From IMG/VR virus record IMGVR_UViG_3300029319_000428, positions 1 to 23,956 of that record: DNA of 23,956 nt. One strand, given 5' to 3'. Positions 1-23,956 of this stretch are shown in pieces. The notes under the pieces were generated by a model. It was given only the letters and a program-made list of their open reading frames with translations, ran no database searches and was not told the origin of the DNA. This DNA is from a virus. How positions within the stretch are numbered: the first letter of the stretch is position 1; every line of letters starts with the position of its first letter. A program made the translations under genes and the position numbers.

Positions 1-383
1 GGGCATTCAAAGATATCAACTTATCCTTCAAACGTCATCCTGTGACGAACGATGTGCTGACAATTCGTAATGAAGATGCGATTAAAAGGTCTGTAAGGAA
101 CATTATTTTCACAATTTTAGGTGAAAAACCATTTGAACCTAATTTTGGATCAGTAATCAACAATACTTTGTTTGATTTAAGCACAAATTTGAATGAAATT
201 CGTGTTTCGGATGAAATTAAACAATCTTTACTTAATTATGAACCAAGAATTGATAATATTGAGGTAACGACATCAATTTATCCTGATTCAAACGAAGTAA
301 ATTGCACCGTACAATATGATATTGTTGGAATTCCAGCACCAACACAAGAAGTAAACGTTCTCTTATTCCCAGCTAGAGTATAA
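1..383 (+). CDS. gp25: Baseplate wedge subunit gp25 (5'-truncated by window edge)
   Basis: This is the 3' part of a gene of the GPW/gp25 family, a small baseplate wedge protein. In T4, gp25 belongs to the conserved core linking the wedge to the tail tube and sheath initiation site, and it carries a lysozyme-like fold without known enzymatic activity. The frame is open from base 3 with no stop. It reads AFKDINLSFKRHPVTND before the family core, including the EDAIKRSVRNII helix, the FEPNFGS segment and the NYEPRID segment. The residues before GTG 42 look like the usual gp25 N-terminus, so the true start lies upstream of the window. The gene ends LLFPARV and its TAA overlaps the gp6 ATG by one base (TAATG), which suggests translational coupling. 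The family assignment is firm; only the missing start is uncertain. Confidence 0.9.
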   Translation, partial: AFKDINLSFKRHPVTNDVLTIRNEDAIKRSVRNIIFTILGEKPFEPNFGSVINNTLFDLSTNLNEIRVSDEIKQSLLNYEPRIDNIEVTTSIYPDSNEVNCTVQYDIVGIPAPTQEVNVLLFPARV

Positions 384-2440
384 TGGCTTTCGGACAATAT
401 GTTAATTTAGATTTTGATCAAATCAAGACATCCATCAGAGATTATCTGAGGGCAAATACTAATTTTACTGATTATGACTTTGAAGGGTCGAATCTTTCAA
501 TCATTATTGATGCGTTAGCATATAATACATACACGACTGCATATAATACAAATGTGGCAGCAAACGAGTGTTTTCTTGATTCCGCTACACTTCGAGAAAA
601 CGTTGTTTCACTTGCCAGAAATATTGGATACGTTCCAAGATCTCGTAGATCAGCAAGAGCAAGGATATCATTCATTGTAAGTGGACTTACAGAGACCTCA
701 ACACTTACAATAAACGCTGGTATCATTTGTAATGGTGCTGGAGCAAACACAAATTACATATTTTGCATTCCAGAGAATATTACAGTCCCTGTTGTGAATG
801 GAGTTGGTCAATTTGACAATATTGAGATATATGAGGGTAATTTTATATCACAAGAATTTACTGTTGACACTTCTTTATTCAATCAAAGATACATTCTTGA
901 TAATTCTTTCATCGACACCTCTACAATTAAGGTAAAAGTTAAACCATCCTCATCATCGACCTCTTCGGTCACATATAAACAGATAGATAATATTATTGGT
1001 ATTACATCAACGTCAAATTCATACTTATTACAAGAAATTGAAGATGAAAGGTATGAATTAATTTTTGGTGACAACGTTATTGGTAAAAAATTGTCAAATA
1101 GTAATGTTGTCACAGTCTCTTACATCACAACTGATGGAAAAGATGGAAATGGCGCTTCAGAATTTAGTTTTGTTGGAAATATTACAAATCAAGATGGTGG
1201 AGCAATAAATCCTTCTTTAATTGGTTTAGTTTCAACTGATGAAAAGTCAAGAGACGGTGATGAAATCGAGTCAATATCATCAATTAAGTATTTTGCACCA
1301 AGAATCTATTCTTCTCAGTATCGTGCAGTCACCTCCTCTGATTATGAATCAGTTTTAGGTTATATTTACCCTAACGTCGAATCTGTGACTGCTTATGGTG
1401 GTGAAGAAATGAATCCACCTCGATTTGGAAAAGTTTTTATCTCAGTTAAACCTCGAAATGGTGATTTTCTATCAGATGAAACAAAAAGAGAACTTATACA
1501 AAAATTAAAGAGTTATGCAGTTGCTGGTATAGTGCCAGAGTTCATTGATTTAAAATATTTGTATGTTGAGTTAACTACAAATCCATATTACAATCCTAGT
1601 TTGAATGATGATCCAGAAAATCTTAAAACTGGAGTTTCAAATGCTCTAACTCAATATTCACGTTCAATAGATGTCAATAAATTTGGTGGTAGATTTAAAT
1701 ATAGTAAAGCAGTATCATTAATTGATAGTGTTGATTCATCAATTACATCAAATATCACTCTGGTGACGATTCGACGTAATTTAAAAGCAGTTTTAGGTCA
1801 ATTTGCTCAATATGAGGTCTGTTTTGGTAATATGTTCCACACCCAAGAGTCTTCTTATAATGTGGTGTCTACAGGATTTACGATTGAAGGTGTGGTTGGA
1901 ACTGTTTACCTTGCAGATGAGGTAATTAACCGTGATAAAGGTCGAATATTTTTCTTTACATACACAGAAGGTGGAACTCCCAATATTGTAAAGAAAAATG
2001 CTGGAACAGTTGATTATATGCATGGTGAAGTTCTTATAGATACTTGTAATATAACTTCAACAGTAATTGAGAATGGTGTAATTGAAATTCAAGCAATTCC
2101 ACACTCAAACGACATTGTTGGTCTTCGAGATTTATATGTTAAGTTCGATATGACGAATACAACGATTAATATGATTCCAGATTTAATTTCATCAGGTGAA
2201 AACACATCTGGTTCAAGATTTGTTCACACTCACAGTTACTATACACCAACTTACACTAGAAAATCAAACTCCCCAGTAACAACTGGTTCTACACTTCTAA
2301 CATCGACAGCCTCTTCAACTGGAACCACAACAACAACTAGTGGCACAGTCGCCTCTTCTGGTGCATCTACATCAACTCCAAGTTCCTCCACACCTACCTC
2401 TTCTGGTGGTGGTGGATCTAGTTATGGTGGCGGATATTAA
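383..2440 (+). CDS. gp6: Baseplate wedge subunit gp6 (baseplate J-like)
   Basis: The 685-residue product is close to T4 gp6 (660). In T4, gp6 dimers join neighbouring wedges into the continuous inner ring of the baseplate. The N-terminus (MAFGQYVNLDFDQIKTSI, then NFTDYDFEGSNLSIIIDALAYNTY) is typical of gp6 in marine T4-like phages. A baseplate J-like region lies at about residues 312-440, from YRAVTSSDYESVLGYIYPNV to ELTTNPYYNP. Residues from about 629 to the end form a Ser/Thr/Gly-rich low-complexity tail ending GGGGSSYGGGY, which looks like an added flexible extension. The start is fixed by the TAATG overlap with gp25; there is no strong Shine-Dalgarno sequence, so coupling is likely. The stop overlaps the next gene in the same way. 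Identification rests on sequence character and on position between gp25 and gp7. Confidence 0.92.
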   Translation: MAFGQYVNLDFDQIKTSIRDYLRANTNFTDYDFEGSNLSIIIDALAYNTYTTAYNTNVAANECFLDSATLRENVVSLARNIGYVPRSRRSARARISFIVSGLTETSTLTINAGIICNGAGANTNYIFCIPENITVPVVNGVGQFDNIEIYEGNFISQEFTVDTSLFNQRYILDNSFIDTSTIKVKVKPSSSSTSSVTYKQIDNIIGITSTSNSYLLQEIEDERYELIFGDNVIGKKLSNSNVVTVSYITTDGKDGNGASEFSFVGNITNQDGGAINPSLIGLVSTDEKSRDGDEIESISSIKYFAPRIYSSQYRAVTSSDYESVLGYIYPNVESVTAYGGEEMNPPRFGKVFISVKPRNGDFLSDETKRELIQKLKSYAVAGIVPEFIDLKYLYVELTTNPYYNPSLNDDPENLKTGVSNALTQYSRSIDVNKFGGRFKYSKAVSLIDSVDSSITSNITLVTIRRNLKAVLGQFAQYEVCFGNMFHTQESSYNVVSTGFTIEGVVGTVYLADEVINRDKGRIFFFTYTEGGTPNIVKKNAGTVDYMHGEVLIDTCNITSTVIENGVIEIQAIPHSNDIVGLRDLYVKFDMTNTTINMIPDLISSGENTSGSRFVHTHSYYTPTYTRKSNSPVTTGSTLLTSTASSTGTTTTTSGTVASSGASTSTPSSSTPTSSGGGGSSYGGGY
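2269..2437 (+). repeat. Ser/Thr/Gly-rich low-complexity tail of gp6
   Basis: The last 57 or so residues of gp6 are almost all Ser, Thr, Gly, Ala and Pro, with runs such as TTTTTSGT and a final GGGGSSYGGGY. The DNA is correspondingly rich in ACA/TCA/TCC/GGT codons. No folded domain is apparent. A flexible linker or surface tail is the simplest reading. Confidence 0.75.
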
Positions 2441-5400
2441 TGATTGACACCTCAATACAAAGAGTCGAGATAAATCAGGTAATTGAAAATCAGTTACCTG
2501 AGTTTGTGCAGTCAGAAAGTCCACTTTTTGTGGACTTCATGAAACAATACTATATTTCTCAAGAATATCAGGGTGGATCAATTAATATTGCTGAGAATCT
2601 TGACAGATACACTAAATTGCAAACATATGTTGGTGCTGCACTCACTGAATACACAGGATTGTCCACTGATACTGAATCTTACTCATCTACAATTTTTGTA
2701 GATTCAACACATGGTTATCCTAGTAAGTATGGTTTGTTAAAAATAGATGATGAAATAATCACATACACAGGAATTGGAACTACATCATTTACTGGATGTA
2801 TTCGTGGATTCAGTGGTGTTGATGCGATGGATCAACCTACAAGACCTGATCTATTATCATTTAACACAAGTGTAGGAGTATCTCATACTGGTGGTAGTAA
2901 AGTTCATAACTTGTCTAATCTTTTTATTCGTGAGTTTTTTGGAAAGTTAAAAACAACGTATGCAAGTGGTTTTGAGAATCGTAAATTAAGTAGTGATATT
3001 GATCAAGTTAAATTTATTCGACAAGTTAAAGATTTTTATCGAACAAAGGGAACAGAGGAGTCATATAAAATTTTATTCAGAGCATTATATGGTCAAGAGG
3101 TAGATATTATAAAACCATCAGATTTTTTAATTAAACCATCTGATGCTGATTATGGTTTTGCACAAGATTTTGTAGTCAAGTCAATCACAGGCGATCCTCG
3201 TAATTTAAAAGGGTCAACTCTTTTTCAAGACGCAGATGATGATGATAAAAATATTCGAGGTGCTTCTGGTGCGATATCAGACGTAAAAGACTTTTTATAT
3301 GACGGTGAACATTACTATCAAATTAGTATTACACAAGATTCAATTGATGGCAACTTTATAGTTCCAGGCAGAACTCGTGTTACTGATCCCGTATCCATTG
3401 GTGCAACTGTGATTACAGTTGATACGACTGTCGGATTCCCTACAAGTGGTTCTTTATCTCTACCGTCAGCAACCACAGCTGGAATAGTAACTTATACAAG
3501 TAAAACTGCAAATCAATTTGTAGGATTGCCAACTGCTGTTGATGTCTTGAATATTGGTGATGACGTTCGATATAATAATGTTGCGTATGGATACTCTTTT
3601 GCAAATATATCAAAGAAAATTGAAGTTTTAATTACTGGTGTTTTAAAAGATTTTCCAATACCAGAAAAGGCATATTACTTTAATAAAGGTGATACAATTA
3701 AAGTTGGAACTTTCGGTATTAACAAAAGTTCTGAAGATTCAAACTTTGGATCTTGGGTTTATAATACGAGTGTCAAATTTACTCCAAAAACTATTGTAAG
3801 ACAATCAAGTAGTAGTTTTAGTATCGTAACTCTCTCCGCTCATGGATTTTTAGAAGAGGATGCAATAGAAGTTTTAGATGGTCAAAATACTTTATTAGGA
3901 GTTGGTCGTGTTTTAAGTGTTATCGATAGTTCCACATTAATATTAGGTGATTTGCCTGGCGTTGGTGAATTCAATATTGCTTTCATTAGAAGAAGAAATA
4001 AAAAAGGAAATAGTTCACTTCATACAAATATTAACAAATACACTACAGATATTCAAAATGCGTATGATAATGAAAGTGAGGGTAACTCTTATATTGCTTC
4101 ACCGTCAATACCAAGTTTAGGTAATGAACCTATAGTTGCACCAGATCGTTCTATAACATGGACTGGCGCCACTGGCGGCGACGTTATACAGTTGATACAG
4201 GTTACAGAGGGTGCTGCAGATCATGGATTTTATTCTGGAGAAGTTGTAACATATAACGTTATTAGTGGTTTCTTAGGACAGTTAATTGATGGTAAAAACT
4301 ATTACATAAGTCGTATTGATTCAAACAACATTCGTCTTGCAAACTCTTTACCTGATTTAATTAACGGTGATTTTGTGGATGCGACTGGAACTGGTACATT
4401 TAAAATATCCGTTCCAGATTTAGCAAATAAAAAATTAGATCATCAAAAACTATTAAAAAGAATTCCATTAACTCCTACATTTGATGGTGGTAAACGTGAA
4501 ACGATTCCAGGCACAACTGGAATGTTAGTAAATGGAACAGAAATATCAAACTATAAGTCAGGTGATGTTATATTTTTTGGTGGTGTTGAATCAATTGATG
4601 TTTTAGAGGGTGGATCTCAATATGATGTGATTAATCCACCAAAAGTGGATGTAGAAAGTTTAGCAGGAGCTGGTGTAAGTGCAACAGCTAATGTAAAAGG
4701 ACAATTTGAAAGAATTGATATCATAGATCCTGGCTTTGATTATGTTGCACCACCTGTGATTGAAATTAGTGGTGGTAACGGTAGAAATGCGATTGCAAGA
4801 TCAAGATTAAAACAAATTGATCATTTTGTTGACTTTGATGCATCATCAACTGGTAACGCAATTAACATTGCAAATGATACGATTGGTTTTGGAACATTTC
4901 ATAAGTTTCGTGATGGAGAAGCTGTAATTTATAAAACGTTTGGAACTGGTGCGATTGGTATTGCAAGTGCTGGTATTACAACAGATCAAATTCAAGAAAC
5001 TCCTGATCAAAGACTTGTTAATGATTCAATTTATTTTGTATCAAAAGTTAATCAAACAACTATTAAACTTGCAAATAATGAAAATGATGCGATAACAAAA
5101 TCAAACTTAATTAATCTTACTGGTTTTGCTGATGGATCACAAAGATTTGAAAGTTTAAGAAAGAAATTTGTTTTAGGTCAAATTATTATTGAGAATCCAG
5201 GCGAGGGATATGAAAACAAAAGAAGATTAATTCCCACAACTGGTATTAATACTTATTCAGATTTTATTGAATATAAGGATCATGGATTTAAAAATGGTGA
5301 GGTTATAAGATATTCAAATGATGGTATTAGAATTGGTGGACTTGATACAGATCAAGATTACTATGTTTTAAAAGTCAGTGATAATCGTTTTAGACTTGCA

Positions 5401-8400
5401 TCTGCTGGTATCGGAACTACTCTATCAGACGCTAACTATTTGTCCAAACAGTATGTTGGTTTGACATCTGTTGGTGATGGTGAACACATATTTAATTATC
5501 CACCAATAGTAGTGAGTGTTAAGGGAGTTATTGGAATTAACACTGCACACCCTGAGAACTATCATGCAACTGTAAATCCCATTGTAAGGGGTTCTCTGAC
5601 CTCTATAAACGTTGAAAAGGGTGGAATAGGGTATGGTGCATCCACAACCTTTAATTTTAGTATTCCTCCTCAAGTTCGTGTTTCATCGGGATCATCATCA
5701 GAATATAAAGCAATCGTATCTAACGGTAGAATACAATCTGTAATTGTCACCCGATCTGGTGGTGAATACACATCTGCTCCTGATTTGAAAATTTTAGGTG
5801 ATGGTGTAGGTGCAAAAATCATATCTTCGATTAGTGGTGGAAGTGTTGATAAAGTAACTGTGGACAATGGTGGAGTTGGATACACAACTGCAACTGTTGG
5901 AGTGGAGGAGATCATACCTGGCTCTGGAGGAGTATTTTTACCAAAAATCAGATCTTGGTCTGTTAATAACGTTAAAAGATATGAAGATATATTCTATGAT
6001 GATGATGGATTCTTAAGTCGTGGAGATAATGATGAGGGTATTAAATTTACATCTTTCTATGCACCTAGAGGACTAAGAAAAATATTAAAACAAAAAAATA
6101 GTGATGGAACAATCGATTATACATCAAATGACCTAAACCTATTGAATAATGCAGAGCAAGTTTCTTTAAATCACTCACCTATTATTGGATGGGCATATGA
6201 TGGTAATCCAATATATGGCCCTTATGGGTATGATCGTAAAGATGGTGGTATTGTAAGAATCATGAGATCTAGTTATTCTCTTAAAACAACAAGAGAAAAT
6301 GGGCCACCAATATCAGAGTTTCCACTTGGATTTTTCATTGATGACTATGAATATCTTGGAAATGGTGATCTTGATGAAAATAATGGTAGATTCTGCATCA
6401 CTCCTGATTATCCAAAAGGAACATTTGCTTACTTTGCAACGATTAATCCAAATGAAAACGAAACGAGTGGAACATTTAAGAACTTCCGTTCTCCAGTATT
6501 CCCATATTTGATCGGTGCAAATTATGCTGCAAAACCTGATGAGTGGAACTTTATTGAAACTAATAATCAAGATCTTGATTTAAATACTCTAGGTTTAAGA
6601 AGAAATACAAATCCATATAAACTTGATAGTTCTGGCGCTGAATATCAAGGAATACATGATAGTCGAAAGAAAGTTGATCAAGATATTGAAGTTAATTATG
6701 CATCATCTGGTGGAATTAATCAATATGAAATATTAAGTGCTGGATCTGGTTATCAAGTAAATGAAAAATTAAATGTAAAGAATTTAGATGAGGGCGCTGG
6801 TTTTGCTGCGAAAATATCTGTTATTGATGGAAAAGAAATTGTATCTATTGCATCTACCATTGTTAAAATTGAAAACATTGTATTTACATATAATAACTCA
6901 AATGGTAATGTTACTGGATTGTCATCACAACCACATGGTCTAGTCGTTGGTGATGTTATCACTGTTTCTGGACTCTCTACAGATAGTTTAAGACAGTTGG
7001 ATGGCAGACATAGCATCGGATTTAACACATCATTTTTACTATTAAACACAGGTATTGGAACCACTGCTGCAACTGGAATTGTTACAAGTATATCTGTAAC
7101 TGGCAACTTAACTCCACAAAGTATTGCGCCAAATGATATTATTGGAATCAACACAGAAAGAATGTTGGTTTTGAATGTTGATAATGTAAATGGTAAGTTA
7201 AGAGTTAAGAGAGAACAGGACGGAGTTCTTGGAACTGCTCATACAAGTACATCTCTTGTTACAGCATTAAATCGTGCAATTACGTTTAACTTAGGTATTA
7301 ACACTGATATTCAAACTAGAGTTAATGTTCCATATTTCTTTAATCCAACTGAAAGTGTTGCGATAGGAACAGCTTCTGGTGTTGGAATTGGATCAACAGT
7401 TAGATACTCATATCGTGTTGTGGGTGGTGGATCAACTGAAATATTTGTACCAACTCAAAATATATTCTTACAGGATCATGGATTTGAAACTGGAGATAAA
7501 CTCACATATTCAAGTGATGAGGGAACTCCTCTTTTAGTATCTAATGGAATAAATGCAGTACCTAATTTTAGATTAACTAATAACTCTCCAGTATTTGCAA
7601 TTAGAGAGAGTAAAGATTTACTAGGAATATCAACTAATGCTCTAGGTATTGGATCTACTGGAGGCATCACTGGTATTGGTTCAACAGCATATCGTTTATT
7701 CTTTGATGATTTTGGAAGTGGTCAAGCACATAGTTTTACACCAACAAAACCAGAAATCACTGGGTTTGTTGAAAAAGTGGTTGGAACTGTTGTTTGCAAG
7801 GAAGCACACAATCTAGCTGCAGCGGATCGTGTATCAATATCTTTAACTCCTGGCATTACAACATCATATCAAGTTGAATTTGATGATACGACAAGAAGAA
7901 CATTTATCAATCCTTTGAATTTTAGTGGTTCTGCTATTGATTTAGAATCAGATCAAATCACTATTCCAGACCACGGATATAAAACAGGAGATAAAATACT
8001 TTACAAATCCACTAGTCCAGCAAACCCACTATTTTCAAACTTTACATATTTTGTTGTAAGAATTGATAAAAATACAATTAAATTATCAGAATCTTCATTT
8101 AAGTCAAAGAAATTAATTCCAGATTGTATATCATTAACATCAACAGGATCAGGACATACAATTGCTTTAATTAATCCACCTATCTTCCTAACTCGTGGTT
8201 ACAAAGTTGGATTTGCTGTATCTGATTCTTCGTTAACACAAGTTGTATCTGGAAAGAGAACTCAAGTGTTCGATTTCCAACTCTTCAGAGACGCCAACTT
8301 TACAAATCCATATTTTAATAATAGTGAAGACGGTGGTTTCCAAGTAGTTGGTGTTGGAACTGTTGGAGTGACTACAACAGCGAGAGTTGATGTTTCTTTA

Positions 8401-14487: not shown

Positions 14488-14495
14488 CATAAATA
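14488..14495 (+). promoter_or_regulatory. Late promoter candidate (CATAAATA) upstream of gp8
   Basis: CATAAATA directly follows the gp7-like stop codon and differs by one base from the T4 late -10 element TATAAATA. Marine T4-like phages are reported to use a relaxed NATAAATA. It lies in the only sizeable intergenic gap (14488-14517), 22 bases from the gp8 ATG, so transcription would begin near 14501 and leave a short leader. This would let gp8 and the genes after it be transcribed independently of the 12-kb gene before them. Confidence 0.6.
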
Positions 14496-14517
14496 AAAAC
14501 AAAAAGTCTTTGATAAA

Positions 14518-16077
14518 ATGTCAGCAATTATAACTGATCAACTGCGTATATTAAACTCTGAGAATTTTGTAGCAGGGATAGCTTCAACTACGAACAGTTA
14601 TTATGCGTGGATTGGTCTTCCTAATCCTAGTGATTTTCAGTCAGATTGGAGTGAAAATCCACCCTCACCAAAAGATTCTTTTAGTGAGGAGAATGATTAT
14701 TGGGATACAATGATCGCTCTTAAGAAGTTGAATTCAGATGATATTGCAAGAGTCGTTAGAAAAATAACTTGGTCATCAGGTACAACATATGAAATGTATC
14801 GTGATGATTATTCCAGATCAAATTTATCACCACAAACTAGTTCAACTAATTTGTTTGATGCAAATTACTATGTGATGAATCAAAATTTCCGTGTTTATAT
14901 TTGCCTACAGAATGGAACAAACCCAGAGAACACATCTGGAAGACCATCTCTTGATGAACCATTATTCACAGATTTAGAGCCAAGATCTGCTGGTGCATCT
15001 GGAGACGGATATATTTGGAAGTATCTTTTTACGATTGATCCAAATAGTATTATTAAATTTGACTCCACAAGTTTTATACCTTTACCTCAAGATTGGTCAA
15101 CAAACAATGAGGTGGCTGCTGTAAGAAATAATGCTGCAACCAGTGGACAGTTAAAGATTGTCACAATCACAAATCGTGGTGTTGGTTATGGAACTGCTGC
15201 AACTTATAATAATGTTCCCATCAAAGGTGATGGAAGTGGTGGTAGATGTTCTGTAGTTGTAAACGCTGCTGGTAAAATTGACTCTGTTGAAATAACTAAC
15301 GGTGGATCTAACTACACTTTTGGTTCTGTCGGATTGAGTGATGTTGGATTAACAAACCCATCAGGATCGACTGATGCAAACTTCAACGTAATCATTCCAC
15401 CTCAAGATGGACATGGTGCTGACATTTATAGAGAGTTAGGTGCAAACCGTGTTTTGATATATTCACGTTTAGAGAATGATGAGTCAAACCCAGACTTTAT
15501 TACAGGAAACCAGTTCTCTCGTGTTGGACTTTGCAGAGATCCTCTTGCATTTGGATCAGATAATAAACTTACATTATCAAAGGCGAGTGCAGTCTATGCT
15601 TTAAAACTAATCGGTGCTGGATCTACAACCACAACATTCACTGCGGACTCAGAGGTTACTCAAGAAATTGGTATTGGATCAACTGCTGTTGGTAGAGTTA
15701 TCAATTATAACGCAACTACAGGAGTTCTTAAATATTGGCAAGATCGTAGACTTGCAATATCAACAGACGGAACTGCACCCAAATATGGATATGAGTTGTT
15801 TAGATTTAATGCTGACCCTGCAACTGGTGCTGGAACAACTATATTTGGTGGAACAAGTAATCTAAATATAGATACCAATTTCGGAACTTCTCTAGAGCCT
15901 GGTCTGTCTACGTCAATAAATAGTAGGACTTACAACTTAGGAATGAGTTTTGTAAAAGGTGTTGCTAACCCAGAGGTTGAAAAATATAGCGGTGATATCA
16001 TTTACGTTGATAACAGAGCTGCTGTTACTCGCAGTACACAGCAAAAAGAAGACATCAAGATCGTACTGGAATTTTAA
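14518..16077 (+). CDS. gp8: Baseplate wedge subunit gp8 (enlarged)
   Basis: In T4, gp8 is a 334-residue dimer in the outer wedge, where it binds gp7 and gp10. This product has 519 residues. Its N-terminal third fits the family in marine T4-like phages: NSYYAWIGLPNPSDF, a PP-S-P-K-D-S segment, NDYWDTMIALKKL, and the conserved DGYIWKYLF (T4 has DGYVWEYLF). The C-terminus QQKEDIKIVLEF is also typical. The extra length includes a GG-GY module at about residues 209-273 and a stretch with IGIGSTAVGRVINYN near residue 385, both resembling the flanking giant proteins. ATG 14518 gives the expected MSAIITDQLRILNSENF start; upstream is A-rich with no strong Shine-Dalgarno. A late promoter candidate precedes it, and six bases separate it from the next gene. 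Confidence 0.87.
   Translation: MSAIITDQLRILNSENFVAGIASTTNSYYAWIGLPNPSDFQSDWSENPPSPKDSFSEENDYWDTMIALKKLNSDDIARVVRKITWSSGTTYEMYRDDYSRSNLSPQTSSTNLFDANYYVMNQNFRVYICLQNGTNPENTSGRPSLDEPLFTDLEPRSAGASGDGYIWKYLFTIDPNSIIKFDSTSFIPLPQDWSTNNEVAAVRNNAATSGQLKIVTITNRGVGYGTAATYNNVPIKGDGSGGRCSVVVNAAGKIDSVEITNGGSNYTFGSVGLSDVGLTNPSGSTDANFNVIIPPQDGHGADIYRELGANRVLIYSRLENDESNPDFITGNQFSRVGLCRDPLAFGSDNKLTLSKASAVYALKLIGAGSTTTTFTADSEVTQEIGIGSTAVGRVINYNATTGVLKYWQDRRLAISTDGTAPKYGYELFRFNADPATGAGTTIFGGTSNLNIDTNFGTSLEPGLSTSINSRTYNLGMSFVKGVANPEVEKYSGDIIYVDNRAAVTRSTQQKEDIKIVLEF
15142..15336 (+). repeat. GG-GY module inserted in gp8
   Basis: Residues about 209-273 read QLKIVTITNRGVGYGTAA, then a Gly-rich stretch, then KIDSVEITNGGSNYTF. 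This is a back-to-back pair of the same module seen repeatedly in the gp7-like protein. As I recall it, T4 gp8 has no such segment, so this is an insertion relative to T4. Confidence 0.65.
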
Positions 16078-16083
16078 AGAATC

Positions 16084-19000
16084 ATGCCACAGGAAACCAA
16101 TCTAAACGTCAATCCATATTTTGACGATTTTGATAAAAATAAAAATTACTATAGAGTTCTTTTCAAGCCAGGCTCTCCTGTTCAAGCACGAGAATTAAGC
16201 ACTCTACAATCTATTTTACAAAATCAGATTGAACAATTTGGTACTCACTTTTTTAAAGAGGGATCAAAGGTAATTCCAGGCAACTTAAGTTATGATAATA
16301 ATTTTACATGTGTTCAAGTTGAAGATGCATTTCTAGGTATTCCAGTTTCTTTATACTTAAATCAATTAGTTGGATTAAGAATCACAGGTGCAAGATCAGG
16401 TGTTACTGCAACAATTAAAAAAATATTATCGAAAGAAGATTCAGATAGAGGGAACATAACTCTTTATATCAAGTACGAAAAATCTGGTGGTGATTTTACT
16501 ACTGAAAAATTTAGTGACGGTGAAAGTTTATCTGCAAGTAAAGATATAGTTTATGGCGCAAGTGTCATTGCTGCGAATGAACCCTTTGCAAACACCTTAG
16601 CATTTGGTGCGACTGCAACTGGATCTGCGATGTCAATCGGTGAAGGTGTATATTTTATTCGTGGAACTTTTGCTCAAGTTCAAAGTGAAACTTTAGTTTT
16701 AAATCAATATAATAATGTTCCATCTTATCGAATTGGATTTGATGTTCAAGAAGATTTTATTAGTGCAGATGAGGATACATCTTTAAACGATAACGCAGCT
16801 GGATTTACAAACTTTGCTGCTCCTGGCGCTGATAGACTTAGAATTGTTATCAGTTTAATGAAGAAAGACCTTGATGATACAAATGATCAAAACTTCATAG
16901 AAATTGCCCGTGTTCAACAAGGTGAGTTACAAACTTTTGTAAAGGAGACTCAGTATAATTTAATCAATGATACTCTTGCAGCTAGAACTTATGATGAATC
17001 TGGAGATTATTATGTAAAACCTTTTGAAGTTTTTGCAAAAGAATCACTAAATGATCAAATTGGAAACAAAGGAATATACACATCAGAACAAAAAACACAA
17101 TCAGGTAATATACCATCAGATGATTTAATGGTGATGCAGATATCGCCTGGAAAAGCATATGTAAAAGGATATCCAATTGAAAAGATATCAACAGGATTTA
17201 TTGATGTTCCAAAACCAAGATCAACAAAAACAATTGAACAAGAGGCTGTAACTTACTCAACTGGAGATCCTTTATTTGTAAATAACGTATTTGGATCACC
17301 AAGTTTAGGAATAGGAACAACAGCAACCGTTTCGTTAATTGACAGAAGAAGAGGAAATAATGGATCTGAAATAGGTCTTGCAAGATTATATGATTTTAAG
17401 GCTCAATCTGGGAGTTTTGTAAATGAAACCACTGAATATGAAACTCGTTTATTTGACATTAAAACTTTTACAAATATTAAAGTTGGAACTGCTATCACTT
17501 CATTAACTGCATCTGATCATATACAAGGTGCAAGAAGTGGTGCAACAGGATTTGTAAAATCGTCAGGGACTAATGTAAGTGATTTTAGTTTGATTGATGT
17601 TGCTGGTAGATTTGTTAAAGATGAATCTATTTTAATTAATGGTGTACAAAATGGAAGAGTAATTACAAAAGTTGATAGTTTTGGATTTAATGATGTTAAA
17701 TCACTTAAGAGCGCAGTTGGCGTGTCAACTTTTGAAGCGGATGTCGTTCTTGATGAAGCAGTTAAACTAACAAATTTGATTTCTGGTAATTTTAGATTAA
17801 GTAATAATAGTGGAAACACTGGTATCATTACTGCTTCTGGAAAAAACTTTGCTGGTATTGTTACATCAAATAGCATAGTAAGTTATACTGTGCCTGGCGA
17901 AACTTTACCAAGATTCAATCGTATCACTGGAGTGTCCACTGATGGTGATGAAATAAATGTTTCTGGTATCACATCTGTCACTGGTGTTTGTAACGGTGGT
18001 GTTTTAGATGGATTGATTCCTGGCTCACTTGATGTAAATGACCTTGTTCTTCGTAATACTAGTTTCCAAGTTGGTGCAAATAGTTTACTTACACCAGTCA
18101 GTCGTAAAAATATCGCAAGTCTTGATGTAACTACAACTAATTTACAATTTAGAAAACAATACTCTGATATAACTGTCGCCAATGGTGCTTTTACATCTCC
18201 AAACGCTGGTACAGATTTATTTTTCCAACCCTTTGATGAAGAGAGATATTTTATATCATACAATGATGGAAGAATTGAACCTTTAAAATCTAGTCAAGTT
18301 ACAATCGCTGCAGATAAGAAAACTGTATCTTTTGTAGGATTAAGTTCAGTATCAGGAAAGGCAAATCTTTTTGCAACAGTATTAAAGTCAAAAGTAAAAA
18401 ATAAACTCAAAAGAGTAAATGATGCGAATGTGGTTAATATTACACGTTCAACTTTAACATCATCTGGAATTGGTACAAACACATTAAATGATGGATTAAC
18501 AAACAGTAGAGTATTTGGTACAAGAGTTCAAGATAGAAAAATTTCTTTAAATGTCCCTGATGTTGCTCAGTTGCTAGCTGTTTTTGAATCTAATAATGCT
18601 GGTGATGCTGATTTACCAGCAGTAACACTCACCGCATATTCTGGCCCAAGTGGTAATAACTCGGATTTAATTGTTGGAGAGCAAATTATAGGTTTAGATA
18701 GTAATGCTGTCGGTTTGGTTGTTGAAAAACCCAACGTAAACACAGTTGGAATAGTGCTACTAAATCAAAATGTATTTTCTATTGGTGAAAAAGTTAAAGC
18801 ATCAAAAACTAATATAACTGCATTGGTAACAGCAACAACAGCTGGTGATCGTAATATCACTGATGAATTTAAGTTAAATCCAAATCAAAAAGCCACATAC
18901 TACGACTATTCATTTATTGAAAGAAAGAAGGAATTTGAACCACCTACAAATCGATTAAAAGTTGTATTTAAAAATTTCTTTGTAACTTCTGATGACACTG

Positions 19001-22000
19001 GAGATTTCTTTAATGCATCCAGTTATTCTGACGATTCTAGAAAGATAATTCCTATTGATAGAAACTATGATGTATATTTAAGCGATCTTATTGACATTAG
19101 ACCAAGAGTAGCTGAATATAACACATCATCAACTACTTCACCTTTTGATTTTGCATCAAGATCTTTTTCTTCACAAGGCGACAGTGTTCCAGATCCTTTA
19201 GTTCCCGAAGAAAACTTAATTGTAACTTATGATTACTATCAACCAAGAAAAGATAGAATATTCTTAGATAAAGCTGGTGATTTTATTTACGTTCAAGGTG
19301 TTCCATCAGATAATCCAAAAGAACCGCAAAATGTAGGAGATGCAATTGAAGTTGCTAAGATAGAACTTCCAGCATATTTGCGTAATATTGATCAAGTAAA
19401 AATGATCAGAACGAAACATAAACGTTTCACAATGGCTGATATCGGAAGACTTGAAAAAAGACTTGAGAGTGTTGAATACTACACTAGACTTTCACTTCTC
19501 GAAACTGATACTGCAAACTTAAATATTACAGATGCAAATGGATTAAGTAGGTTTAAATCAGGATTTTTTGTTGATAACTTTAAAAAACATGCGTCTCATC
19601 AAATTGATCATCCAGATTTTTCTGCAAGTACAGATGCAAAGAGAGGTTATCTAAGACCTGGCCACTATACCACATGTTTGGATCTAATAGTTGGTTCAAG
19701 ATCTTTCATTGGTATTGGAACAACTGCAAATCCAGATTTAGATCTTAATTACTTAGATGACATTGATGGAGATAACATCAAAAAAACTGGTCGTCTTCTT
19801 ACATTAGATTACACAGAAACAGAAATGTTGAAGCAGATATATGCTTCTAGAGTTGAGAATGTCAACCCATTCTTGATTGTATATTATTCTGGTGATATGA
19901 CAATTACTCCAGACTCTGATGTGTGGATGGATACAAAGAGAGTTGATGCAAGTATCACATACGATACATCTGCTTATGATAGTGCAATTTCACAGTTAGG
20001 AATTGATAAACAAACTGGATTCAGTGAAGTTAACTGGGGTGCATGGGAAACAAACTGGGTATCTGAAGAAGTATCAGAGACATACGTTGAAGAAACTGTT
20101 GAAGCATTAGGAAATATACACCCAGATGATTTACCAGAGGGTGTTCAGACAAATTTACAACACATTGCAAACTATAAAAAAGTTCTTGAATTAAATGGTA
20201 AGTGGGTTCCAAAAGGTGCTGGTGTGATATCTGGTGCTGAATTGATTACTAAAACTTTCCATCAAGATGTTGAAATAAATACTCAACAGTCGAGAGAAGG
20301 TATTCAATATAAAGTAACTCCTAAAATTAGTGAACAATCTTTAGGTGATAGAACATTAAGTCGTGATATCATTCCTTACATGAGAGAAAGAAATATTGAG
20401 ATCACCACTAATCGTATGAAGCCTAGAACTCAGTTCTATGTTTATTTTGACAACGTTGACGTAACTAGATTTACAACACCTAAATTACTTGAAATTGAAA
20501 TGATAAGTGGTGTTTTCCAAGTTGGAGATAGAGTTCACGGACATCATCCTGGCGCCTATCATAAAACATTCAACTTTAGACTCGCTGCGCCAAATCATAA
20601 AGAGGGCCCATACAATGCACCAACAAAAGTATTAACTGTAAATCCATATGATAATGAAGCACCAGTTCCAAATGTATATTCAACTTCATCTACTCTTTTG
20701 AATATTGATACATTTCATCTTGCAACACAAGTTTCTCAAAAATTTAATGGATACGGTGCGGTTGGCATGCATTTATATGGAAGTAGTGGAGCTCAGGCGA
20801 AAATAAAGAGTATGAGATTGATCACAGACACTCTTGGAAATTTAAAATGTTGTTATAATATACCAGATCCAAATGATAATTCAACTCCAAGATTTGAAAC
20901 AGGAACGAAAACTTTAAGATTAACAACAAGTCCAACTAACTCAACAGTTGCTGGAACTGTTACAGGATCTGCTGAAGCAAACTTCCATGCGAAAGGTGAA
21001 TTAGAAACTGTTCAAGAACAAATCTTAAATATTAAAACTCCACAAATCGAAAGATTAGGTGTTGAAGAACAAAGAGTTCTAAATGATAAGATTACAAGAA
21101 GAGTAGAAGGTTTACAAGGCGAAACTGAAATACTTGAGATTACTGGTGTTCAGTATTATGACCCTCTTGCACAAACTTTCCGTGTTGATGAAACTACTGG
21201 TGTATTCATTACATCTGTAGATGTATTCATGAGAGATAAGGATGAGGAGTTACCTCTCACATTACAGGTTAGAACTGTGGAAACTGGATTACCAACATCT
21301 AAGATACTACCATTTAGTGTTGTTGTTAAAGATCCAAGTGAGGTAAACGTATCAGAAGATGCATCTATTCCAACCACGTTTACTTTTGACTCTCCAGTTT
21401 ATCTTACAGGAGAACATGAATATGCTTTAGTTCTTGTGACACCAGCAGAAAACTATAACTGTTGGATATCAAGAATGGGTGAAGTTGACATATCAACTGC
21501 AAATCTTCCTGATGAACAACAGGTGTTAATTAGTCAACAACCATACTTAGGATCTTTATTTAAATCACAGAACGGTACAACATGGGATCCAAGTCAGTAT
21601 GAGGATATGAAATTTACTATTAGAAAGGCTGTATTTAATACAAGTCCCTCTGTTGGTAGATTTTTCAACGCAGAATCATCAGATGACGATGAGGGAATTA
21701 CTCCAAACTTACAATCAAATCCAATTAAAACTTTAGGTAGAAAAGCTATTGTTGGATTGGGTGTTACTATTCCTGATACTGCTGGACTTATACCTGGCGT
21801 TAAGATTGGTCAGTTTGGTAATGATGAGGCATCTGCACAACTTATCAATGTCGCTGGAGTTGCAACAGTTGGTGGCCCAAATGATATGACAATAATAAAT
21901 CCTGGCGTTGGTTATACACCCTCTAATGGATCTTTTGTGTATTCTGATATTCCAATGATTACTGAAACAGGTGAAGGAAGTGAGGCAGTTGGAAACGTTA

Positions 22001-23667
22001 CAGTTAATAATGGAGAAATAAGCTCAGTTACTCTTACAAACGGTGGTAAAAACTACGCAGTTGGAGACACTCTTGGAATTGGAACACTAGGTCTTGGAAA
22101 TGGAAGTGGCGCTGTTATTTCTGTTGGTTTAGTTACTGAAAGAAATAGTTTAGTAATTACTAATATTCAAGGTTCATTTAATACAGGTGTTGGAACAGTT
22201 GGATTTAATAATGGATCTGCTTTCCTTGGGTTAGACGGAACTACAGGTGTTGGAACTACAGCTGCTGGAAATATTGGAAGTGGGGTAACAATATCATCAT
22301 TTGATGTTGATACAACTGAAGATGGTTTACACTTTAGAGTTGATCATCGAGCACACGCTATGCATGCGTTTAACAATTTAGTTAAAATATCTGGTGTTGA
22401 ATCTGATATCACTTCGACTAAGTTAACAGCAGACTATGCCAATACCTCTACAGCAGATATATCTGTGGTGAATTCCTCTAACTTTGCAACGTTTGAAGGT
22501 GTAGGAGTTGGAACAACAAATCATGGTTATGCAATTATAGGAAATGAAATTATCTCTTATACTGGTGTTACGAACGGTGCTATTACTGGAGTTACCACAA
22601 GAGGTATAGACAACACAACCCCACAGACTCACGATTCTGGTGAGGAAGTTAAAAAATATGAGTTTTCTGGAGTTTCTCTTAGAAGAATTAACAAGACTCA
22701 TGATATGAACAGTCCAGCTGTAACAGTTCCAAATGATAAAGATTTAGACTTTTATCATATCAAACTTGACATGAGTAAAAATGGAACGAATAGAACTGCA
22801 AGTGGCCCATTCCCAGCTAAATTCTTCTCACAAACAAAACGAGGTGGTGGACTAGCTGTAGTAGCATCTCAAAATGTCCAGTTTGAAACAATAACACCAA
22901 ATATACAAACTATGACACCACCTGGCACAAATATTGGTGCTCGTGTAAGAACTGTATCTGCAACAAGTATTGATGGATCTGAACAGTCATTTGTAGATCA
23001 AGGATTCCAAGCGGTATCAGTAACAGGTCAAACACATTTTGAAACTCCAAGAATGGTTGCATCCAAACTTAATGAGGATCGTCAACTTGCTAATTTACCT
23101 GGCAACAAATCATTAACACTTGAAGTATTAATGACTTCTAATAGTCGTAACGTTTCACCTGTAATTGATTTAGATCGTGTCAGCACAGTTCTAACTACAA
23201 ATCGTGTTAATAGTCCTGTTTCTAATTTTGCAACTGATAGTCGTGTAAATGAAACAGGTCAAGATCCTTGTGCGTCAACATATGTTTCTAAGATGGTTGT
23301 TTTAAATAATCCAGCAACCAATATATTAGTTGAATTTGCTGCTTATCGAAGAACTGATTCTGATATTCGTGTATTCTTTAAAACAATATCAGAAGGATCA
23401 ACAGAAAATAGTTTAGATCGTAACTTTGAATTATTCCCAGGCCATGATAATATAGATCAAAATGGTGCGGTAATTAATCCTTCTAATAATAGTGGTCTTC
23501 CAGATGACCCAGTTCCAGCCTCTGTTGGTGCTGAATTTAGAGATTATAGTTTTACATCTAGAGAATTACCACCATTCACTAAGTTCCAAATTAAGATTGA
23601 TATGGTTGGAACTAATCAGGCACAACCACCATTAATTAAAGAACTTAGAGCAATCGCACTTGCATAA
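16084..23667 (+). CDS. DUF4815-type large virion structural protein, 2527 residues
   Basis: The N-terminus (NPYFDDFDKNKNYYRVLFKP, VQARELSTLQSILQNQIEQF, then FFKEGSKVIPGNLSY) matches DUF4815, a family of large phage baseplate or tail proteins of unknown exact role. Further family-like segments are SPGKAYVKGYPIEK near residue 351, a YDVYLSDLIDIRPRV segment near 990-1010, a predicted coiled coil around 1115-1145 (MADIGRLEKRLESVEYYTRL), a charged helix near 1640-1690, and a C-terminal beta domain from YYDPLAQTFRVDE (about 1691) to YNCWISRMGE (about 1790). A GG-GY pair (about 1933-2014) and an 'EIISYTG' module (about 2119) resemble the gp7-like protein. The position after gp8 is where T4-like phages keep gp9 and gp10, so a peripheral wedge or fibre-network role is inferred, not proven. 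AAAGA before the ATG is a weak ribosome site; the stop overlaps the next ATG (TAATG). Confidence 0.78.
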   Translation: MPQETNLNVNPYFDDFDKNKNYYRVLFKPGSPVQARELSTLQSILQNQIEQFGTHFFKEGSKVIPGNLSYDNNFTCVQVEDAFLGIPVSLYLNQLVGLRITGARSGVTATIKKILSKEDSDRGNITLYIKYEKSGGDFTTEKFSDGESLSASKDIVYGASVIAANEPFANTLAFGATATGSAMSIGEGVYFIRGTFAQVQSETLVLNQYNNVPSYRIGFDVQEDFISADEDTSLNDNAAGFTNFAAPGADRLRIVISLMKKDLDDTNDQNFIEIARVQQGELQTFVKETQYNLINDTLAARTYDESGDYYVKPFEVFAKESLNDQIGNKGIYTSEQKTQSGNIPSDDLMVMQISPGKAYVKGYPIEKISTGFIDVPKPRSTKTIEQEAVTYSTGDPLFVNNVFGSPSLGIGTTATVSLIDRRRGNNGSEIGLARLYDFKAQSGSFVNETTEYETRLFDIKTFTNIKVGTAITSLTASDHIQGARSGATGFVKSSGTNVSDFSLIDVAGRFVKDESILINGVQNGRVITKVDSFGFNDVKSLKSAVGVSTFEADVVLDEAVKLTNLISGNFRLSNNSGNTGIITASGKNFAGIVTSNSIVSYTVPGETLPRFNRITGVSTDGDEINVSGITSVTGVCNGGVLDGLIPGSLDVNDLVLRNTSFQVGANSLLTPVSRKNIASLDVTTTNLQFRKQYSDITVANGAFTSPNAGTDLFFQPFDEERYFISYNDGRIEPLKSSQVTIAADKKTVSFVGLSSVSGKANLFATVLKSKVKNKLKRVNDANVVNITRSTLTSSGIGTNTLNDGLTNSRVFGTRVQDRKISLNVPDVAQLLAVFESNNAGDADLPAVTLTAYSGPSGNNSDLIVGEQIIGLDSNAVGLVVEKPNVNTVGIVLLNQNVFSIGEKVKASKTNITALVTATTAGDRNITDEFKLNPNQKATYYDYSFIERKKEFEPPTNRLKVVFKNFFVTSDDTGDFFNASSYSDDSRKIIPIDRNYDVYLSDLIDIRPRVAEYNTSSTTSPFDFASRSFSSQGDSVPDPLVPEENLIVTYDYYQPRKDRIFLDKAGDFIYVQGVPSDNPKEPQNVGDAIEVAKIELPAYLRNIDQVKMIRTKHKRFTMADIGRLEKRLESVEYYTRLSLLETDTANLNITDANGLSRFKSGFFVDNFKKHASHQIDHPDFSASTDAKRGYLRPGHYTTCLDLIVGSRSFIGIGTTANPDLDLNYLDDIDGDNIKKTGRLLTLDYTETEMLKQIYASRVENVNPFLIVYYSGDMTITPDSDVWMDTKRVDASITYDTSAYDSAISQLGIDKQTGFSEVNWGAWETNWVSEEVSETYVEETVEALGNIHPDDLPEGVQTNLQHIANYKKVLELNGKWVPKGAGVISGAELITKTFHQDVEINTQQSREGIQYKVTPKISEQSLGDRTLSRDIIPYMRERNIEITTNRMKPRTQFYVYFDNVDVTRFTTPKLLEIEMISGVFQVGDRVHGHHPGAYHKTFNFRLAAPNHKEGPYNAPTKVLTVNPYDNEAPVPNVYSTSSTLLNIDTFHLATQVSQKFNGYGAVGMHLYGSSGAQAKIKSMRLITDTLGNLKCCYNIPDPNDNSTPRFETGTKTLRLTTSPTNSTVAGTVTGSAEANFHAKGELETVQEQILNIKTPQIERLGVEEQRVLNDKITRRVEGLQGETEILEITGVQYYDPLAQTFRVDETTGVFITSVDVFMRDKDEELPLTLQVRTVETGLPTSKILPFSVVVKDPSEVNVSEDASIPTTFTFDSPVYLTGEHEYALVLVTPAENYNCWISRMGEVDISTANLPDEQQVLISQQPYLGSLFKSQNGTTWDPSQYEDMKFTIRKAVFNTSPSVGRFFNAESSDDDEGITPNLQSNPIKTLGRKAIVGLGVTIPDTAGLIPGVKIGQFGNDEASAQLINVAGVATVGGPNDMTIINPGVGYTPSNGSFVYSDIPMITETGEGSEAVGNVTVNNGEISSVTLTNGGKNYAVGDTLGIGTLGLGNGSGAVISVGLVTERNSLVITNIQGSFNTGVGTVGFNNGSAFLGLDGTTGVGTTAAGNIGSGVTISSFDVDTTEDGLHFRVDHRAHAMHAFNNLVKISGVESDITSTKLTADYANTSTADISVVNSSNFATFEGVGVGTTNHGYAIIGNEIISYTGVTNGAITGVTTRGIDNTTPQTHDSGEEVKKYEFSGVSLRRINKTHDMNSPAVTVPNDKDLDFYHIKLDMSKNGTNRTASGPFPAKFFSQTKRGGGLAVVASQNVQFETITPNIQTMTPPGTNIGARVRTVSATSIDGSEQSFVDQGFQAVSVTGQTHFETPRMVASKLNEDRQLANLPGNKSLTLEVLMTSNSRNVSPVIDLDRVSTVLTTNRVNSPVSNFATDSRVNETGQDPCASTYVSKMVVLNNPATNILVEFAAYRRTDSDIRVFFKTISEGSTENSLDRNFELFPGHDNIDQNGAVINPSNNSGLPDDPVPASVGAEFRDYSFTSRELPPFTKFQIKIDMVGTNQAQPPLIKELRAIALA
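21880..22125 (+). repeat. GG-GY module in the DUF4815 protein
   Basis: The segment reads MTIINPGVGYTPSNG, then a Gly-rich stretch, then ISSVTLTNGGKNYAVGDTL and GNGSGAVISVGLV. It is the same paired module as in gp8 and the gp7-like protein, located between the C-terminal beta domain and an 'EIISYTG' module at about 22438-22650. Confidence 0.65.
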
Positions 23668-23900
23668 TGACAAATTACATACCAGTTGAAGGAAAGTCTG
23701 GATTTTATCGAGACTCTGAATCTACAGCAATTATCAATAAAGATAAAAAAGCTTATGCTGCATATATGCAAAGAAAGAAAGCTGTAGAAAGTAAAAATAA
23801 TGAGTTAGATCAAATGAAAGAAGATCTTGATAATGTGAAAGGTGAATTAGGTGAAATTAAAGGTCTTTTATCTACTCTTGTTCAAAAACTAAATAATTAG
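23667..23900 (+). CDS. Small coiled-coil protein, 77 residues, function unknown
   Basis: I do not recognise a named family, although small ORFs of the form 'V-E-G-x-x-G-x-x-R-D-x-x-x-x-A-I-I-N' are familiar from marine T4-like phages. Residues 1-33 carry YIPVEGKSGFYRDSESTAII then a Lys/Tyr/Ala-rich helix. Residues 47-75 form a textbook heptad register: L47, M50, L54, V57, L61, I64, L68, L71, L75, spaced 3-4 throughout, with charged residues between. An oligomeric coiled coil, probably a small virion or assembly factor, is likely. The start is fixed by the TAATG overlap with the preceding structural gene, implying coupled expression. No cysteine, signal peptide or membrane segment is present. 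Confidence 0.8.
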   Translation: MTNYIPVEGKSGFYRDSESTAIINKDKKAYAAYMQRKKAVESKNNELDQMKEDLDNVKGELGEIKGLLSTLVQKLNN

Positions 23901-23904
23901 AAAA

Positions 23905-23956
23905 ATGGCACAACAACAGGTAATCACTTTTGATCCAGATGTTGCCGTTCCAATGG
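23905..23956 (+). CDS. Start of a further late gene (3'-truncated by window edge)
   Basis: ATG 23905 begins four bases after the preceding stop and reads MAQQQVITFDPDVAVPM to the window end with no stop. The tight spacing and same strand suggest it belongs to the same late transcription unit. Seventeen residues are too few to name a product. Confidence 0.6.
   Translation, partial: MAQQQVITFDPDVAVPM

What the first reader, a model, noticed from the sequence alone, without database searches (positions are those of the whole stretch)
1..23956. GGWCC appears to be absent; every Gly-Pro pair avoids it by synonymous choice
Seen: reading the + strand (the site is palindromic) I found no GGACC or GGTCC in the window. 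I located all ten Gly-Pro pairs in the five main proteins: eight use GGC and two GGG for Gly (GGC or GGG at 6217, 6301, 9397, 12031, 13555, 14440, 18643, 20605, 21874, 22804), although Gly is otherwise mostly GGT or GGA. The GC-richer relatives GGCCC/GGGCC are present about ten times, so the avoidance is specific to W in the middle. Known: GGWCC is the AvaII-type target, and such systems are common in cyanobacteria. Inference: selection against a host restriction or nicking target, which could point to the host.
Basis: partly seen in the sequence, partly recalled or inferred. Interest (0 to 1): 0.62.

Follow-up and report, generated by a model that had tools for sequence, protein, structure and literature searches.

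The report
Ocean cyanophages purged of GGWCC sites
A whole group of uncultured ocean viruses related to T4-like cyanobacterial phages has lost every copy of the 5-letter DNA word GGACC/GGTCC, apparently because a bacterial cutting enzyme targets it; site loss is a known trick, but it is unusually complete here and hints at which host defences these viruses face.

Summary
The window has no GGWCC; codon-shuffled versions average 10.9 (minimum 6 in 1000). All ten Gly-Pro pairs use GGC/GGG, against 91% GGT/GGA for other glycines. The window is a fragment of an uncultured T4-like, cyanophage-related virus. It is a clade trait: 210 loci (1.66 Mb, overlapping homologues) contain zero GGWCC and 0/662 Gly-Pro pairs with GGW; more distant relatives are normal (393 sites in 0.72 Mb; 317/340). 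In a 92-kb composite of distinct genome regions GGWCC is 0 versus 48 expected, single-base variants are near expectation, and GGSCC is enriched fourfold. Selection therefore acts on the exact site, in all frames, not on codon pairs. Five further palindromes are (nearly) eliminated, and one sub-lineage has eliminated GTAC. Best explanation: GGWCC-type Type II restriction in the hosts. An intact SinI-type (GGWCC) endonuclease-methyltransferase pair lies in a picocyanobacterial genome itself depleted in GGWCC (39 vs 79); two Prochlorococcus-like genomes carry an 86% identical methyltransferase. These systems are rare in the genomes sampled, and no physical host link was found. Restriction-site avoidance is a known strategy; the scale and the open-ocean cyanophage setting are the interest.

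The parts
1..23956 (.). Region free of GGWCC on both strands (palindromic site)
   Evidence: 0 matches; codon-shuffle expectation 10.9 in coding sequence
42..383 (+). gp25-like baseplate wedge subunit
   Evidence: PHROG 261, E 6e-34
383..2440 (+). gp6-like baseplate wedge subunit; used for the clade tree
   Evidence: PHROG 219, E 2e-197; tree
2440..14487 (+). gp7-like giant baseplate wedge initiator (4015 aa); holds six of the ten Gly-Pro pairs
   Evidence: PHROG 2885; same position as gp7 in S-SM2 and P-SSM2
14518..16077 (+). gp8-like baseplate wedge subunit
   Evidence: PHROG 438, E 6e-165
16084..23667 (+). VrlC-like giant structural protein (2527 aa); holds four of the ten Gly-Pro pairs
   Evidence: PHROG 358; S-SM2 homologue annotated VrlC
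23667..23900 (+). small virion protein
   Evidence: PHROG 473, E 4e-25
6217..6221 (+). Gly-Pro pair coded GGC CCT
6301..6305 (+). Gly-Pro pair coded GGG CCA
9397..9401 (+). Gly-Pro pair coded GGC CCT
12031..12035 (+). Gly-Pro pair coded GGC CCA (overlaps GGGCC at 12030)
13555..13559 (+). Gly-Pro pair coded GGC CCT
14440..14444 (+). Gly-Pro pair coded GGG CCT
18643..18647 (+). Gly-Pro pair coded GGC CCA
20605..20609 (+). Gly-Pro pair coded GGC CCA (overlaps GGGCC at 20604)
21874..21878 (+). Gly-Pro pair coded GGC CCA
22804..22808 (+). Gly-Pro pair coded GGC CCA

Best explanation
Restriction-site elimination. A clade of lytic T4-like cyanophage relatives has been under sustained selection by GGWCC-specific Type II restriction (SinI/AvaII kind) in its hosts. 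Any genome carrying an unmethylated GGWCC was cut on entry, so synonymous changes (mostly GGT/GGA to GGC/GGG before Pro, plus changes in the other frames) removed every site and selection keeps removing new ones. Shown: complete, exact-site, clade-wide absence with a single main origin and partial depletion in the nearest sister group. Inferred: that the agent is a restriction endonuclease, that it is a host's, and that the hosts are picocyanobacteria of the Prochlorococcus type. My confidence in restriction as the agent is about 0.8; in a Prochlorococcus-type host, about 0.5.
For: 0 GGWCC in 210 clade loci totalling 1.66 Mb, against 393 in 44 outgroup loci (0.72 Mb); Gly-Pro 0/662 GGW versus 317/340. 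Non-redundant 92-kb composite: 0 vs 48.0 +/- 4.2, of which about 14 expected sites lie in the two frames that do not involve Gly-Pro. All one-base variants have ratios 0.72-1.08, and GGSCC 3.9. The tree puts all 42 full-length gp6 rows of the clade in one fully supported group with zero sites. The replication module shows the same: 0 vs 268 in 78 contigs. Several other Type II palindromes are eliminated too, and one sub-lineage has eliminated GTAC (0 vs about 180), which fits changing restriction targets. An intact RE_SinI (E 3e-40) plus C5-methyltransferase pair lies in picocyanobacterial genome G108, which is itself depleted in GGWCC (39 vs 78.9, z -5.5). The SinI-linked methyltransferase has 56-58% identical relatives in G108, G423 and G438. 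Site elimination in non-temperate dsDNA phages under Type II systems is documented (PMC6286503).
Against: The system is rare in sampled picocyanobacteria: RE_SinI in 1 of 400 and a close methyltransferase in 3 of 400 Cyanobiaceae genomes, and Prochlorococcus typically carries 0-1 restriction systems (PMC8262939). No clade phage was found inside 400 Cyanobiaceae genomes. G423 and G438, which carry the methyltransferase, are not significantly GGWCC-depleted and have a different, TdeIII-like endonuclease (weak match). Three loci close to the clade keep one GGWCC each (L047, L050, L467).
Confidence: 0.8

Rival explanations
1. The phages themselves encode a GGWCC-cutting nuclease used to degrade host DNA (Prochlorococcus has about one GGWCC per kb) or rival phages, and are immune because they carry no sites.
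For: It would explain why elimination is absolute and keeps across diverged members, and why a GC-rich sister group, probably with another host, is also depleted (4 vs 15.1 and 1 vs 13.2). Host genomes are full of sites (984 vs 985).
Against: No homologue of the SinI-type or TdeIII-like endonucleases or of the methyltransferase in about 39,000 ORFs of 461 viral loci. Several unrelated sites are eliminated, which would need several such enzymes. About half of the genome is still unseen, so this is not excluded.
Confidence: 0.07
2. Same mechanism, but the selecting host is not a Prochlorococcus-type cell: for example a restriction-rich marine cyanobacterium (filamentous or unicellular diazotroph) that these phages also infect.
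For: Close relatives of the methyltransferase occur in 39 of 386 cyanobacterial genomes across the phylum. Filamentous cyanobacteria such as Symploca and Leptolyngbya are depleted in GGWCC (4/16, 7/16, 7/25). The system is rare in picocyanobacteria.
Against: The closest isolates infect Synechococcus or Prochlorococcus. The clade shares CCGG, TTCGAA and CGCG absence with the Prochlorococcus phage P-SSM2, whereas the Symploca contigs have near-normal CCGG.
Confidence: 0.2
3. No selection on the site: codon-pair preference, tRNA context or mutational bias happens to remove GGW-CC.
For: In the window most of the expected sites are Gly-Pro pairs (9.0 of 10.9).
Against: Sites are also missing in the other two frames (about 14 expected in the composite) and outside coding sequence; one-base variants are normal; close outgroups of similar GC and Prochlorococcus genomes use GGW before Pro freely.
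Confidence: 0.02
4. Avoidance is a fossil of a past restriction system or of an earlier host and is not maintained now.
For: GGWCC systems are rare in sampled genomes. Site avoidance can persist as a trace of lost systems (PMC4687349).
Against: Members differ by up to about 19% in gp6 amino acids and would have regained sites by drift; three near-clade loci with single sites show that regain or recombination occurs but is rare.
Confidence: 0.08

Closest known systems
Restriction-site avoidance/elimination in non-temperate dsDNA phages (Rusinov et al. 2018, PMC6286503)
   Same: Exact Type II palindromes missing, lytic-type dsDNA phage, elimination below 0.1 of expectation
   Different: Here shown for an uncultured marine clade with unknown host, across 210 loci, with about six sites eliminated and lineage-specific turnover (GTAC)
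SinI (GGWCC) Type II restriction-modification system, Pfam RE_SinI PF09570 with a C5-methyltransferase
   Same: G108 carries an endonuclease above the family cut-off next to a C5-methyltransferase 57% identical to that of other SinI-type pairs
   Different: It lies in a candidate host, not in the phage; specificity is inferred from family, not measured
Kyanoviridae cyanophages S-SM2 and P-SSM2
   Same: Gene order gp25-gp6-gp7-gp8-VrlC-gp13-gp14; gp23 79% and gp43 72% identical; P-SSM2 also lacks CCGG and TTCGAA
   Different: Both have normal GGWCC (34 and 31 per 50 kb); the clade also lacks YACGTR

Membership tests
Restriction-site elimination (PMC6286503 sense) | Observed/expected below 0.1 with expectation above 15 | tested here: met
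   Composite 92 kb: 0 vs 32.7 (maximal-order Markov) and 48 (codon shuffle); the window alone has too low an expectation (5.7-13.8)
Restriction-site elimination (PMC6286503 sense) | Specific to the recognition word, not to its neighbours | tested here: met
   Single-base variants 0.72-1.08; GGSCC 3.9
Restriction-site elimination (PMC6286503 sense) | Host carries a cognate orthodox Type II system | tested here: inconclusive
   SinI-type pair in 1, close methyltransferase in 3 of 400 Cyanobiaceae genomes; no host proven for the clade
SinI-type restriction-modification (in G108) | Endonuclease of the RE_SinI family | tested here: met
   L553:8681-9313, E 3e-40, 138 bits vs cut-off 22
SinI-type restriction-modification (in G108) | Adjacent C5-cytosine methyltransferase | tested here: met
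   L553:9330-10499, PF00145 E 2e-64; 57% identical to SinI-linked methyltransferases
SinI-type restriction-modification (in G108) | Cuts and methylates GGWCC | not testable with these tools
   Needs expression or methylome data
Kyanoviridae | Core genes closest to, and nested among, cyanophage T4-like genomes | tested here: inconclusive
   Best hits all cyanophages or marine single-cell phages (gp6 up to 55%, gp13 63%, gp23 79%, gp43 72%); no rooted core-genome tree made
Kyanoviridae | Infects cyanobacteria | not tested
   Host unknown; psbA was not found in the parts of the genome seen

The most novel reading that the evidence does not exclude
The phages carry their own GGWCC-specific nuclease without a methyltransferase, used against host or competitor DNA, and protect themselves only by having no sites; the purge would then be self-immunity rather than evasion of host restriction.
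Probability: 0.07. Interest if true: 0.8.

Novelty: new member of a known kind. Interest (0 to 1): 0.5.

Why it matters
Prochlorococcus and open-ocean Synechococcus are described as nearly free of restriction systems, yet a widespread clade of their presumed phages has erased several Type II sites completely. Either restriction matters in the open ocean more than genome surveys suggest, or these phages infect other hosts. The set of missing sites is a barcode that can be matched to host restriction repertoires, so the host of an uncultured clade becomes testable.

Tried and rejected
Codon-pair or Gly-Pro effect: rejected by the other frames, single-base controls and outgroups. A general picocyanobacterial habit: rejected, Prochlorococcus loci have 984 GGWCC vs 985 expected, though mostly from one homologous region. 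A general cyanophage habit: rejected for GGWCC and true for CCGG/TTCGAA. An early reading that high-light Prochlorococcus also avoids YACGTR (54 vs 209) was dropped, because that number comes mostly from one homologous region and G423/G438 show 12/17 and 12/14. Host by integrated or captured phage contigs: nothing close in genome contigs or in 400 Cyanobiaceae genomes. Host by psbA: no psbA in the clade contigs fetched. Phage-borne GGWCC enzymes: none by sequence (positive control). tRNA genes: none in the parts searched. No structure prediction was run, as it would not bear on the question.

Full report
What was claimed and what is there. The claim is that GGWCC is missing from the window and that Gly-Pro pairs dodge it. 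A computed search confirms zero GGWCC and twelve GGSCC at ten places. All ten Gly-Pro pairs use GGC or GGG, whereas 649 of 710 other Gly codons are GGT or GGA. Shuffling synonymous codons among the same amino acids gives 10.9 +/- 1.6 sites, never fewer than 6 in 1000 shuffles, and 1.6 GGSCC where 12 are seen. Markov expectations range from 5.7 to 13.8.

What the window is. The record is a 26,139-base virus fragment with gp25-, gp6-, gp7- and gp8-like baseplate proteins and a giant VrlC-like protein, followed by gp13 and gp14 (identified by gene order and by tblastn hits to annotated neck proteins). The gene order is that of cyanophages such as S-SM2 and P-SSM2. The nearest isolates are all marine cyanophages, at 55% (gp6), 63% (gp13), 79% (gp23) and 72% (gp43) amino-acid identity, so the window belongs to an uncultured lineage without a known host.

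It is a clade trait. In 41 viral contigs with gp6 at least 81% identical there is no GGWCC, while relatives near 50% identity have normal counts. The same boundary appears with gp13: loci at 85% or more have none, those at or below 82% are normal. Walking along the genome through overlapping contigs extended this to the structural and replication modules; 78 replication-module contigs have 0 sites where 268 are expected in coding sequence. In all, 210 clade loci of 1.66 Mb hold none, against 393 in 0.72 Mb of outgroup. Gly-Pro pairs are 0/662 GGW in the clade and 317/340 in the outgroup. The clade loci overlap and are homologous, so the independent test is a 92-kb composite of non-overlapping regions: 0 sites versus 48.0 +/- 4.2 (codon shuffle) or 32.7 (Markov).

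It is selection on the exact word. In the composite about 14 of the 48 expected sites lie in frames that do not code Gly-Pro, and they are missing too. All twelve single-base variants occur at 0.72-1.08 of expectation, and GGSCC at 3.9 times. Prochlorococcus contigs have 984 GGWCC versus 985 expected (mostly one homologous region around psbA), and 99-kb samples of two Prochlorococcus-like genomes have 48 vs 52 and 43 vs 49. Codon-pair or mutational bias is therefore not a workable explanation.

History. A gp6 tree puts all 42 full-length clade rows in one group with full support and zero sites (FastTree, local support only). The nearest sister group is depleted but not empty (4 vs 15.1; 1 vs 13.2 in L583). 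Three loci close to the clade carry one site each, two of them in the same accessory glycosyltransferase-like gene; recombination or assembly chimerism could explain these. The clade has also eliminated CCGG (0 vs 54), TTCGAA (0 vs 25), YACGTR (0 vs 47), GTATAC (0 vs 15) and nearly CGCG (2 vs 36). CCGG, TTCGAA and mostly CGCG are also missing from P-SSM2 and from phages of marine single cells, so these are older or more general; GGWCC and YACGTR elimination set this clade apart. One sub-lineage has eliminated GTAC as well (nine loci, 0 vs about 180), while GTATAC reappears there. Gain and loss of whole palindromes between close relatives is what changing restriction pressure would produce.

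Who cuts. Pfam RE_SinI contains endonucleases that recognise GGWCC (family knowledge; SinI methylase and GGWCC are discussed in PMC10899764). SinI-type pairs were found in two cyanobacteria. Their methyltransferase, used as a query on 400 Cyanobiaceae genomes, found three close relatives (56-58% identity): G108, G423 and G438. In G108 the neighbouring ORF is an intact RE_SinI endonuclease (E 3e-40), and the genome sample itself is depleted in GGWCC (39 vs 78.9, z -5.5), which is the mark of a long-resident system (PMC4687349). G423 and G438 have an 86% identical methyltransferase next to a different endonuclease with a weak TdeIII match and are not depleted. By its psbA neighbourhood G438 is closest to high-light-type Prochlorococcus contigs and G108 to low-light-type ones (the ecotype labels are mine, from GC content and the contig titles). 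So a GGWCC-type system does exist among cells of the kind these phages should infect. It is rare in the sample, though: RE_SinI in 1 of 400 and the close methyltransferase in 2 of 266 of the genus of G423, against 39 of 386 cyanobacteria at large with a relative at E below 1e-100. Published surveys also put Prochlorococcus at 0-1 systems per genome (PMC8262939).

Limits. No physical link between a clade phage and any cell was found, no psbA was recovered from the clade, and about half of the genome is unseen. A phage-borne nuclease is not excluded, although no relative of the candidate endonucleases or methyltransferase occurs in 461 viral loci (with positive control). Whether the selecting host is a picocyanobacterium or a restriction-rich marine cyanobacterium remains open.

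Verdict. The finding is real, strong and correctly read in outline. Restriction-site elimination is a known phage strategy (PMC6286503), so this is a new member of a known kind; its completeness, the number of sites purged and its setting among presumed phages of nearly restriction-free cyanobacteria make it worth following.

Noticed in passing
window 1-23956 and clade loci: CCGG, TTCGAA, YACGTR, CGCG and GTATAC are also eliminated or nearly so in the clade; CCGG and TTCGAA are also missing in P-SSM2 and in marine single-cell phages, and CGCG in most of them.
   Followed up: partly
L025, L027, L029, L039, L111, L121 (27-kb record G004), L376, L384, L416: A sub-lineage has no GTAC at all (0 vs about 180 expected) while its relatives keep about a third of the expected number; GTATAC avoidance is relaxed in the same loci.
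   Followed up: partly
window 1-23956 and clade loci: The non-palindromic word CCTGC/GCAGG is depleted (38 vs 97 in the composite), strongly in the structural genes and less in the replication genes; it is normal in close outgroups.
   Followed up: partly
L553:8681-10499, L554:8194-10328, L555:8087-10221: In picocyanobacterial genomes G108 and G438 the GGWCC-type system sits directly after guaA; G423 and G438 share an identical 300-aa endonuclease candidate with only a weak TdeIII match, possibly a new endonuclease family.
   Followed up: partly
L583 and L587-L590 (GC 41-42%): A GC-rich sister group is strongly depleted in GGWCC (1 vs 13) but keeps TTCGAA at near-normal counts, so GGWCC avoidance seems older than the other losses in this lineage.
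   Followed up: partly
L273 (AG-345-O18 phage): A single-cell phage outside the clade is depleted in GGWCC (9 vs 25) without loss of GGCC, a possible second, independent case.
   Followed up: no
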